A DNA stretch of 64,000 bases from NCBI RefSeq assembly GCF_036324505.1, contig NC_086352.1:33536358-33600357 (forward strand). The letters run 5' to 3'. This stretch comes from Eleginops maclovinus (lineage: Eukaryota > Chordata > Actinopteri > Perciformes > Eleginopidae). The notes under the pieces are model-generated. The model had not been told where the DNA came from, did not search any database, and was given only the letters and a program-made list of their open reading frames with translations. This document shows positions 25,721 to 39,399 of the stretch, piece after piece (the first letter of the stretch is position 1; each line of letters begins with the position of its first letter). A program made the position numbers and the translations under genes.

Positions 25721-25939
25721 TTCAGAGCAGAACTGCTAATGCAGTATGGTTGCACATGAAACTTGAAATCATTTGATTGTGAAGTTATTAACTGACATCC
25801 CTGCAGTGGAAAATTACATTTTGTGATTTCAGGTTGTTCTCTCTATGCACATTCTCATTTCAGACATATCCTTAAATACTGACAACTCAATTGTTGACAA
25901 ATGTTCATTTCCCACCAAAATGTATGGAACATACATGTC

Positions 25940-26023
25940 AGATAAGCCTGTGAGTTTTGCTGATTCTGTGACTTGCTGTACTCACCATATTTGGGCTGAC
26001 AGACCAAGCTGAACGTATATAAA
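25940..26023 (+). promoter_or_regulatory. Astacin C promoter: GATA, CArG and TATA motifs
   Basis: AGATAAG (25940-25946), CArG box CCATATTTGG (25985-25994) and TATATAAA (26016-26023) precede the 5'-UTR exon, in the same order as in copy A on the opposite strand and identical to copy D. Binding by GATA factors or SRF is inferred from motif identity only. Confidence 0.75.
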
Positions 26024-26162
26024 AAGCTGGAGAGAATCCTCCACTACACAAATCCACACCCAGGATCCAAGGTGAGTTCAGTGTGCACTTTGTTTCAGGG
26101 AGTTCAGATTCTCCTGTGTGTGTGTGTCTATGCTCTAAGTGAAGCTGTGTGTGTCCTGCAGG

Positions 26163-36184: not shown

Positions 36185-36323
36185 AAGCTGGAGAGAATCC
36201 TCCACTACACAAATCCACACCCAGGATCCAAGGTGAGTTCAGTGTGCACTTTGTTTCAGGGAGTTCAGATTCTCCTGTGTGTGTGTGTCTATGCTCTAAG
36301 TGAAGCTGTGTGTGTCCTGCAGG

Positions 36324-38995
36324 ATGTCTGTCTTCAGGTTCTCCGCTCTCGCTCTGCTGCTTCTGGCTGCCTGCTGCTGGGCCGACAGTGAGGTAGGAGC
36401 AATGGGAGTGTGATATCTGCTACATTTTCACGTTAAAATGCATGTTTGATGAAAGGATTTCTGACTCATACGAACATGCTCATCTTCCCATCAGCTGTGA
36501 AATTCATTTAGCAGTTATTTAAACCTCAGATGAGTCTTTAAGACCATCATTTATTATCTTTGCATTACTTTGTATCATTTCTTTAGTATTATTGCACTGT
36601 ATCTGCACAGCATATTTGATTTTAAGAAGCACTCTTGAACACAGTGTCTTTTCTTAGGACACAGTATTTGGTTGTTTTGCTGAAAAATTGTTCTGGTAAC
36701 CTTGAGCTGTAATTTCAAGTCATGGTCCTATATGTTTCTAATGTGTTTCATTCTCTCCTCTAATCTCACGCTGAACCTGCAGGCAGGTATGTATCTATAT
36801 ATTATAATAATTAGACCTCAAGTGCTGACATGCCCAGTTTATGCTCCTGTGTTTTTACACAAAATAAAATGGTGTTGTTGATGTCACTCTGCAGAGAAGG
36901 AATCAGAGGAGCTTTCTGTGTCTGAAATTCTGGAGAGAGCCAACACAAATCTGGGTGAGTGTGAGCTGCTGCACCTCCATGCTCCTCATCTTCTATCAGT
37001 GTCTCTTAGCAGGAGTTTGAGATGCTGTGTGATGTGTTTCAGTTCGCTCCGACAATGAGCCCATCCTGACTGAATTGGACATCGCCATCGACAACGAGGC
37101 CGAGAGAAACGCCGACCCCTGCACCAGCCGTGGCTGCAAGTGGTTGAAGAACAGTGATGGAAAGGTCTACATTCCCTATTACATCACCAACCACTTCTGT
37201 AAGTGTCACACAGCCAGGCTAACATGACTGTCTGTATACTGTAGGCTTTCCCTTTGAATGCGGCTTCCTGTAGCAGCTTCCAAAATGCTTGAGAATGAGA
37301 CTGAGCGGAGAACTGTTCATCTAGTATATACAGTACTGTAATAGGTAAACTAAGCCAGGTCCCCTGGAGTCAGGACATGAATGACAACAAATAAAAAGAG
37401 AGTAGAAAAGGTCAAACACAGTAATGATTCAAAACTTAAGAATTAGAAACCAACTAGTCACTCATCAGATGCTCATTATATACTCCAGGTGGGAAGGCCA
37501 TTTCAATTTTCAGTTATTTATGTAATTTATTTCTTCCTCTAAAGCAACAATAGGTTAAACAAGCAATCCGACATAGCAAATAAAACACAAAAACACATAT
37601 TTTTCCTCATAATGTGTGACTGTAAATACCTTTGTTCACTCTCCATCTGAAATGCTGTCTCTTGAAGGGCGCCTCCTCCAAAAACAAACCTGATCTGATT
37701 GGCTTGTGAGAGAAATCTGGATAAATTGGGAGGATATATTCAGTACTGAGCCTTCACGTAACATAGAAGACAGGCAAATCTGAATGGTTTTGTTGAATCC
37801 CATGTTTTCTGTCTTATTTGACCATTTATGGGTTTGTAGGCAGTAAATAATGCAACACTCTGCAGGAGTTGTTCATTCTAAAAGAATTTCTGCTGTTGTA
37901 AACATAACTGTGATGTAATTTCCAGAAAGAAAGCTGTTAAATAAGATAAACGTTGTGTGCTATGCTCATGCCAGCCTCCCGCGAGAAGGCCATCATCACC
38001 CGTGGACTGGAGTCCTTCTCATCCTTCTCCTGCATCCGCTTCAGGCCCACCTATAGCAACGACCGCGACTGGCTGCAGATCGAGTCCCAGAATGGGTGAG
38101 AAAATTATGTTGTTGAAAAGTTGGAGATCCAAAACATTTCTCAAAGGTCAGTGCCCTTTAACTGAACTCTGACTCCCTCCAGCTGTTGGTCCTACGTCGG
38201 CCGTCGCGGTGGAAAGCAGGTGGTGTCCCTGAACCGTGGAGGATGTCTTTACCACCACACCGTCCAGCACGAGCTGCTCCACGCTCTGGGCTTCAACCAC
38301 GAGCAGACCCGCTCCGACAGAGACAACCACATCAGAGTCCTGCTGCAGAACGTCCAGTCTGGTAATGGAGCTGGTTATAATTCACAATGATTAAAAGAGG
38401 AGAGAAAAAATTGCAGTTTCAAGCCTCTCAAATATTGGGATTTGCTGATTTCATCTGTTGTATATCAAGTTATATAGAGTCCCTTAGAGCCTAAATAAAT
38501 CTCAAGAGACATTAACAGGTCACTAGGATAATTCTTCAGCAGCTGGATTCTATCCTGTTTAGAAGTGAATTCAAAATAAATTACAAATGTTATTTCTTGT
38601 ATCTTTTCTAGGTATGGAGCACAACTTCAACAAGATTGCCACCCTGAACCAGGGCACTCCCTATGACTACAACTCTGTCATGCAGTACTTCAGGTGAGAA
38701 CATCATGGCTTCACTTCCTCCCTGCTGCTGTGTGTTTCTTTGTGTTGGTGTGTGTGTCTCAGTGTAACTGCTCTGTGCCGTCTTCCAGGACTGCCTTCTC
38801 CAAGAACGGCCAGCCCACGATGATCCCCATCCCTAACGCCAACGTGTCCTTCGGCAACGCTAAGGAAATGAGCCGTAATGATAAGTCCAGGCTCAACACT
38901 CTCTACCAGTGCTGTGAGTGTCCGCATGACCACATTTTCACTCCTGTCTGTACTACACATCAGTTTGACCTAACCCTCCTCTCACTCTTACAGAG
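36324..38995 (+). CDS. Astacin metalloprotease copy D (hatching-enzyme/c6ast type)
   Basis: Exons: 5' UTR about 36204-36232; 36323-36392 (ATG 36324); 36783-36786 (GCAG); 36895-36954; 37043-37198; 37975-38095; 38183-38361; 38612-38693; 38789-38913; 38994 to about 39115. The predicted 265-residue protein appears identical to copy C: same signal peptide, ELDIAID propeptide motif, HELLHALGFNHE zinc site, SVMQY Met-turn and NTLYQC end, stop split T|AG. AATAAA lies near 39091. The intron after NHF keeps the uninterrupted ancestral sequence that copy C lost, and its donor is the stronger GTAAGT. Likely the less disturbed of the two copies. Secreted zinc protease; specific role not readable. Confidence 0.93.
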
Positions 38996-39399
38996 GAAGC
39001 TGATCGCATGTGCTGACTGAGGATCAGAGGAAGACTATCTCCTGAAGCTCTCTCAACAACAGAAGCTACAGATTCAATCATTCATCATACAATAAAGTTA
39101 CTTTGACTTTAACATAACACTTTTTCCTTTCATTTTTCATCAAACCGTTTTAGATGTTGTCTCAAAGGCTAAGCCTATTCATATGTATATAATAAATATG
39201 ATTTGTTTTCATTACACATTTTCTGACATGCAATGTGTAGTTACAGTATCACATGCTAACTTTTTCTACATTTAGGATGATTCTAAAGATTAAAGATTTT
39301 CAAATAACTACAGAAATGTGCATTTTGGATGTTTGTCTTTAAAAAGTGTTTAAGAAAACATATTATGGAAGCTAAATAAACTCACAGAATTGATCAGAG

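What the first reader, a model, noticed from the sequence alone, without database searches (positions are those of the whole stretch)
25913..39232. Sharp-edged near-identity of astacins C and D points to gene conversion
From about 25913 to 31012 and 36074 to 39232 the two copies are almost identical even in introns, and their predicted proteins are the same. Just outside, the sequences are still homologous (25815-25912 with 35977-36073; 31013-31165 plus 33063-33310 with 39233-39620) but much more diverged. A simple recent duplication would not leave older-looking homology continuing at both edges; homogenisation by gene conversion would.
Basis: partly seen in the sequence, partly recalled or inferred. 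Interest (0 to 1): 0.78.

Follow-up and report, generated by a model that had tools for sequence, protein, structure and literature searches.

The report
Two fish protease genes kept identical
In an Eleginops (Patagonian fish) chromosome, two neighbouring protease genes appear to have been overwritten to near-identity by gene conversion while the older, diverged DNA around them stayed different; this is a clear example of a known process rather than a new one.

Summary
Outside two inserts, C (25905-31013) and D (36066-39235) differ at 11 of 2,984 aligned positions, none coding. The flanks are homologous but diverged: 16 of 88 positions differ on the left, 39 of 131 and 47 of 191 on the right.

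Gene conversion is the best explanation. Besides the flank contrast, (i) C's hAT-like copy looks up to five times older than the C/D identity, (ii) divergence steps up near the right edge (0/1191, then 6/312, then 39/131), and (iii) the inverted paralogue B shares a 340-bp perfect patch with D across an intron, which unequal crossover between direct repeats cannot make. A whole-genome search lists no third full-length copy.

The genome matches the published Eleginops maclovinus assembly. The genes are six-cysteine astacins, probably at the nephrosin/pactacin-type locus. Donor direction, absolute age, read-level support and genome copy number of the D flanks are untested. This is ordinary interlocus conversion, but a clean case.

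The parts
25817..25901 (+). C left flank, older homology to D 35976-36062
   Evidence: 16/88 aligned positions differ over 25817-25904; alignment
25902..27385 (+). C homogenised tract, left part (upstream DNA, exons 1-4, start of intron 4)
   Evidence: 5/1481 differences to D, counted from 25905
26163..30773 (+). astacin gene C, coding exons 26163-26226 (or to 26231 plus a 4-nt exon), 26734-26793, 26882-27037, 29753-29873, 29961-30139, 30390-30471, 30567-30691, stop completed at 30772-30773
   Evidence: splice-phase model, CDS identical to D
27386..29510 (-). hAT-like transposon in C intron 4, right end missing; absent from D
   Evidence: 46 listed matches across the genome; 11 of 11 other copies fetched continue past this copy's right end; weak DUF4371 match below cut-off
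29511..30701 (+). C homogenised tract, right part 1
   Evidence: 0/1191 differences to D
30702..31013 (+). C tract, right part 2, higher divergence (older or separate tract, or tapering end)
   Evidence: 6/312 versus 5/2672 elsewhere, Fisher p=0.0004
31014..31164 (+). C right flank, older homology to D 39236-39366
   Evidence: 39/131 differ
31182..33062 (.). second transposon, in C right flank only
   Evidence: positions 169-2049 of query 31014-33300 match a high-copy family, 84-87% over 987-1627 in the leading rows (one match runs to 2075)
33085..33276 (+). C right flank continued, homologous to D 39402-39600
   Evidence: 47/191 differ
35976..36062 (+). D left flank
36063..39235 (+). D homogenised tract
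   Evidence: no full-length match listed in the genome besides D itself and C in two pieces
36324..38995 (+). astacin gene D, coding exons 36324-36387 (or to 36392 plus 36783-36786), 36895-36954, 37043-37198, 37975-38095, 38183-38361, 38612-38693, 38789-38913, stop completed at 38994-38995
37547..37732 (+). D intron-4 sequence missing from C; partly similar to B intron 4, so probably ancestral
   Evidence: D 37606-37692 vs B 8308-8224, 64%, E 5e-4
39236..39600 (+). D right flank
6836..9974 (-). astacin gene B, inverted paralogue
8571..8910 (-). B patch identical to D 36911-37250 (340/340) and to C 26750-27089 except at 27041, spanning part of exon 3, intron 3, exon 4 and the start of intron 4
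   Evidence: permutation

Best explanation
C and D are older tandem paralogues of a six-cysteine astacin whose bodies were recently overwritten by interlocus (ectopic) gene conversion. Shown: a body 0.37% different between flanks 18-30% different, with abrupt edges; private transposons in C; a perfect 340-bp patch shared by D and inverted B. Inferred: a break in one copy was repaired from the other without crossover, in at least two tracts of different age or one tract with a tapering end (29511-30701 versus 30702-31013). Also inferred: the truncated hAT-like insert in C predates the homogenisation and was left in place as a heterology, so the left and right tracts may be separate events. Donor direction is not known.
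For: Flank/core contrast and significant flank homology. The core is found in full only at C (in two pieces) and D among 33 listed matches in 606 Mb. The C hAT-like copy has a terminal branch of 0.0117 (12 copies) or 0.0092 (20 copies), against 0.0018 per lineage for the C/D body; 3.9 substitutions would be expected if it were no older. C's right-flank transposon is 84-87% identical to leading listed copies over its best-matched part, which suggests that the C flank is an old, separate locus. Stepped divergence at the right end, p=0.0004. B/D 340-bp identity, against a longest run of 44 in 10,000 permutations of 3,050 columns; at the exon mismatch rate outside the patch (33/578) the chance of 0 in 340 is 2e-9; 0 of 67 codons differ in the patch versus Ks 0.13 in the other 194. 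B is in opposite orientation, so crossover would invert DNA rather than homogenise it. After the patch, B's protein groups with Pogonophryne and Pseudochaenichthys proteins (ultrafast bootstrap 95), which suggests an old B versus C/D split.
Against: The left-flank homology is only about 88 bp and lies about 115-200 bp upstream of a TATA-like box, so it could be a conserved enhancer rather than plain old flank. The hAT-like copy's branch is an upper bound on its age: an unsampled source copy could shorten it (40 of 295 candidates scored), transposons may mutate faster than gene bodies (recalled), and only 8 of 2111 sites are strictly private among the 20 copies, borderline against 3.9. The permutation for B/D mixes exons and poorly aligned introns, which exaggerates it; with exon columns strung together the longest clean run outside the patch is 195. 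B-D coding Ks (0.13) is below the C-D flank distances (0.21-0.38), so flank and coding rates are not directly comparable, or B's exons are partly homogenised too. In the protein tree C/D's own position is unresolved. The left and right-1 tracts do not differ significantly (p=0.07). In one search, 40 of 1556 candidates were scored and D's flank itself was not listed, so the lack of other flank matches there says little. Searches with the D flanks alone did not complete. No reads or related genomes were available.
Confidence: 0.9

Rival explanations
1. Recent segmental duplication of the gene into a new site, with flank resemblance due to shared repeats or a conserved enhancer.
For: The body is near-identical throughout; the left flank homology is short and close to the promoter; genome copy number of the D flanks is unknown.
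Against: Homology continues collinearly on both sides at 18-30% divergence. C's right flank carries a transposon, 84-87% identical to leading family members, that D lacks. The hAT-like copy in C looks older than the identity. It does not explain the B patch.
Confidence: 0.04
2. Assembly or polishing artefact: one body sequence placed or corrected into both loci.
For: The published assembly used PacBio CLR reads, wtdbg2 and arrow (passages of PMC10298351); that such reads are error-prone is recalled.
Against: Read N50 22 kb exceeds the C-to-D spacing of about 10 kb. The copies differ by a 2.1-kb insert, a 186-bp loss and 11 substitutions, 6 of them in the last 312 bp. The window has no N. Cross-mapping would not be expected to stop where older homology begins.
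Confidence: 0.05
3. Unequal crossing-over between direct repeats (expansion then contraction) homogenised C and D.
For: C and D are direct repeats about 10 kb apart.
Against: Crossover joins a left flank of one copy to the right flank of another and spreads whole units with spacers; here the flanks of the two genes stay distinct, and B is inverted.
Confidence: 0.03
4. Strong purifying selection or slow mutation in the bodies, without exchange.
For: The coding sequence is identical.
Against: Introns of C and D are nearly as identical (6 of the 11 differences lie in introns), while many introns of B align poorly to D outside the patch.
Confidence: 0.01

Closest known systems
Ectopic gene conversion in Drosophila Hsp70 and Amylase paralogue pairs (review PMC3924832, passages seen)
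   Same: Linked paralogues, described there in palindromic orientation, kept alike by conversion; the review notes that this orientation may limit copy-number change.
   Different: There supported by shared variation; here one genome, with direct (C/D) and inverted (B) partners and a spared transposon.
Interlocus gene conversion in human segmental duplications (PMC10172114, passages seen)
   Same: Multi-kb tracts (mean 6.26 kbp reported) and whole genes converted (171 genes reported in a subset of haplotypes).
   Different: That study works on high-identity segmental duplications across haplotypes; here the flanks of the pair differ by 18-30%.
Teleost C6AST clusters: nephrosin, pactacin, patristacin, hatching enzymes (PMC8812170 section 6 and passages, PMC8012361 passages)
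   Same: Multi-exon six-cysteine astacins on one chromosome; here next to an anoctamin gene.
   Different: 'gene conversion' occurs 0 times in both papers, and 'concerted' 0 times in the main text of PMC8812170.

Membership tests
Interlocus (ectopic) gene conversion | paralogues near-identical within a tract but more diverged, still homologous, on both sides | tested here: met
   11/2984 inside; 16/88, 39/131, 47/191 outside
Interlocus (ectopic) gene conversion | identity run longer than permutation allows (GENECONV logic) | tested here: met
   B/D 340 bp versus maximum 44 in 10,000 permutations over 3,050 columns; caveat that exons and introns are mixed, longest exon-only run outside 195
Interlocus (ectopic) gene conversion | paralogues within a species closer than orthologues in the tract, by position outside it | tested here: inconclusive
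   Proteins only: B equals C/D at 66 of 66 tract residues but groups with other species' B-type after it; C/D's place unresolved; no orthologous DNA available
Interlocus (ectopic) gene conversion | non-reciprocal transfer, donor unchanged | not testable with these tools
   needs population or outgroup DNA
Recent tandem duplication | similarity ends at a breakpoint into unrelated sequence, insertions younger than the duplication | tested here: not met
   flank homology on both sides; C transposons appear older, with the age caveats given
C6AST (six-cysteine astacin) | HExxHxxGFxHExxRxDR zinc motif (given in PMC8812170) | tested here: met
   HELLHALGFNHEQTRSDR in the translation; PF01400 matches at C and D; solved relatives 3lqb and 3vtg
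C6AST (six-cysteine astacin) | SxMHY Met-turn as given in PMC8812170 | tested here: not met
   reads SVMQY; 11 of 12 relatives fetched also read SVMQY and one SGMQY, so the departure is shared by the group
C6AST (six-cysteine astacin) | six cysteines in the protease domain | tested here: met
   six counted by eye from NADPC to YQC in the translation
nephrosin/pactacin subgroup | location in the mtch2-plekho2-fadd-ano1 neighbourhood | tested here: inconclusive
   an anoctamin gene at C4:33.491-33.514 Mb, about 18 kb from the nearest astacin exon found, which anoctamin is not resolved; ndufs3-type gene (patristacin marker) at 28.36 Mb; other markers not searched, no subgroup tree made

The most novel reading that the evidence does not exclude
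A three-gene conversion network. C, D and inverted B exchange sequence repeatedly in tracts of different age, exons are kept alike while many introns of B drift, and a transposon in C intron 4 older than the last exchanges acts as a barrier that splits the C/D tract without being removed.
Probability: 0.5. Interest if true: 0.5.

Novelty: new member of a known kind. Interest (0 to 1): 0.38.

Why it matters
It gives a compact natural test case in which conversion edges, tract age steps, an inverted partner and datable transposons lie within about 33 kb. It warns that near-identical astacin paralogues in this fish cannot be dated from gene-body divergence alone. If dosage or function of these secreted proteases is under selection in notothenioids (not tested), conversion is a mechanism that would keep copies alike.

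Tried and rejected
My first worry, that the flank similarity might just be shared repeats, was weakened but not removed: the repeat part of C's right flank spans 31182-33062, and the flank pieces on either side align collinearly with D; the D flanks themselves could not be searched. I first read the intron-4 element as simply inserted after the duplication; the other copies and the branch lengths point to an older, later-truncated insertion, with the unsampled-source caveat. Polarising the 11 C/D differences with B worked reliably at only three sites by my reading of the local alignments (26605 and 30702 derived in D, 27041 derived in C), so donor direction stays open. The B patch's direction is also open: single protein sites in relatives do not settle it. 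Rfam found nothing at its gathering thresholds. A gene-conversion report for teleost astacins was sought (21 papers held 3 of 4 terms; 0 of the 20 listed had 'gene conversion'; 3 papers, 0 with 'gene conversion'). One search found 19 papers with gene conversion, notothenioid and paralog; only the listing of 10 was seen. Searches were seen as listings too. PMC2939575 and the other hatching-enzyme papers were not opened, apart from PMC8812170 and PMC8012361.

Slips: the Fisher test for flank versus core used 54/218 typed by hand, while the aligned counts are 55/219; the contrast is unaffected in kind. In one search the B protein was typed with an A before DG where my reading of the splice would give T; this lies outside the tract and outside the part used for the tree. 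The tree used 10 of the 12 proteins fetched (P0001 and P0097 left out) plus B and C/D, and one row (Dissostichus) holds a stretch that looks misannotated. The draft protein used as query had wrong ends and only served to map exons; the splice models were off by single bases and were replaced.

Full report
Identity of the sequence. The window is C4:33536358-33600357 of a 606,306,633-bp genome in 27 contigs; contig C4 is 37,057,500 bp long. The published Eleginops maclovinus assembly has a largest scaffold of 37,057,500 bp and 606,289,673 bp in 26 scaffolds (passages of PMC10298351), so I take it to be that assembly, with one extra contig. Fitting this, four of the five best protein hits are notothenioid (Gymnodraco 92% over the full query, Champsocephalus 94% over 92% of it); the top hit by score is a double-domain protein of Nibea albiflora at 81%.

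Genes. tblastn maps four astacin genes in the window: B (9737-7027, minus), A (15286-12109, minus, diverged), C (plus) and D (plus), and a weak match at 205-74 (minus, E 0.18) that is probably the first exon of a fifth gene, Z, whose other exons lie just upstream. C and D have eight exons, or nine if a 4-nt exon is used, with a stop completed across the last splice. The proteins are six-cysteine astacins with the zinc motif, though the Met-turn reads SVMQY; the best solved matches are 3lqb and 3vtg (that these are zebrafish and medaka hatching enzymes is recalled). Automatic names call the relatives low choriolytic enzyme-like or hatching enzyme 1.2-like. PMC8812170 says that only teleost hatching-enzyme genes lack introns and that nephrosin and pactacin lie in a set with ano1. 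An anoctamin gene lies at C4:33.491-33.514 Mb, beside this cluster, and an ndufs3-type gene, a patristacin marker, at 28.36 Mb. A nephrosin/pactacin-type locus is therefore likely, not proven.

The observation. Between C and D there are 11 differences in 2,984 aligned positions: 5/1481 to the left of the intron-4 heterology, 0/1191 to its right, and 6/312 in the last stretch. The last stretch differs from the rest (p=0.0004), so more than one tract or a tapering end is likely. None falls in the modelled coding sequence. Outside, 16/88, 39/131 and 47/191 positions differ, yet the similarity is far above shuffles. Upstream of 25817 no convincing homology remains.

Transposons as clocks. C 27386-29510 belongs to a repeat family; 40 of 295 candidates were scored, and 26 of the 46 listed matches (C's own included) run from query position 1-2 to at least 2042. 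I call it hAT-like from a DUF4371 match below Pfam's cut-off and a recalled end motif. All 11 other copies fetched share further sequence past C's right end, so C appears to have lost the element's end together with the 186 bp that D retains, part of which B resembles weakly. The C copy's terminal branch is 0.0117 with 12 copies and 0.0092 with 20. The closest copy differs at 29 of 1966 sites, and 8 of 2111 sites are private among the 20 copies. The C/D body has only 0.0018 changes per lineage, which predicts 3.9 substitutions in the element if it were no older. This favours insertion before homogenisation, but an unsampled source copy or a faster mutation rate remains possible. The second element, in C's right flank at about 31182-33062, is 84-87% identical to leading family members over its best-matched part and less elsewhere. 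It lies between the two pieces that align to D's flank, so C's flank looks like an old locus of its own. That search scored 40 of 1556 candidates and did not list even D's flank, so it does not show that the flank pieces are unique.

Third partner. B is inverted. Many of its intron windows align poorly to D, but D 36911-37250 equals B 8910-8571 at 340 of 340 positions, across intron 3 and into intron 4; C differs at one site, 27041. In 10,000 permutations of 3,050 columns the longest run was 44; because this mixes exons with poorly aligned introns, the fairer figure uses the exon mismatch rate outside the patch (33/578), giving 2e-9 for a clean 340, while the longest clean run of exon columns outside is 195. 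Outside the patch coding Ks is 0.13 (194 codons), inside 0 (67 codons). Ks 0.13 is below the C/D flank distances, so the rates are not directly comparable, or B's exons have been partly homogenised as well. B's protein after the patch groups with Pogonophryne and Pseudochaenichthys proteins (ultrafast bootstrap 95; C/D's place unresolved), which argues against B being a recent copy of C or D. Inverted orientation excludes ordinary unequal crossover as the cause of the patch.

Alternatives. The core has no other full-length match among the 33 listed in the genome, so no third donor is seen. An assembly error would have to stop where older homology starts and still preserve a private insert, a private loss and clustered substitutions. 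The assembly's read N50 of 22 kb exceeds the 10-kb spacing, but reads were not available to me. Genome copy number of the D flanks could not be obtained because the search machine did not answer.

Verdict. The process is well known: reviewed for Drosophila Hsp70 and Amy (passages) and mapped in humans with a mean length of 6.26 kbp and 171 genes converted whole (passages). I found no report of it for teleost astacins in the searches, which cover only open-licence papers.

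Noticed in passing
74-205 (minus): Probable exon 1 (weak match, E 0.18) of a further astacin gene (Z) whose other exons lie upstream of the window in L009; it resembles the start of a second protein type (P0097, P0100).
   Followed up: partly
36783-36786 (D), same place in C: A 4-nt exon GCAG would give the reading ADSEAEKESEEL, like ADTEAEKESEEL in Gymnodraco; the alternative donor at 36388 also keeps the frame.
   Followed up: partly
G000:C10:19524396-19583187: Six single-exon-like astacin copies; the five fetched (L004-L008) share about 90-97% identity in their longest pairwise alignments of about 1.5-3.5 kb, another candidate for concerted evolution.
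   Followed up: partly
27041: C has GTACGT where D and B have GTAAGT at the intron-4 donor; may weaken splicing of C.
   Followed up: no
2914-5456: ORFs with a Spin-doc zinc finger and a hAT dimerisation domain; one 92-bp stretch is 70% like the C insert.
   Followed up: partly
18290-18835, 20670-21311, 23402-24238, 51317-52485: Transposase (DDE_3, DDE_Tnp_4, Tc1/Sleeping Beauty type) and reverse-transcriptase fragments: the cluster is transposon-rich.
   Followed up: partly
37723-37811: Intron-4 stretch of D similar to places on C2, C3 and C12 (77-83%): a small dispersed repeat beside the C/D heterology.
   Followed up: no
10861-11027: Long GT dinucleotide array about 1 kb upstream of gene B.
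   Followed up: no
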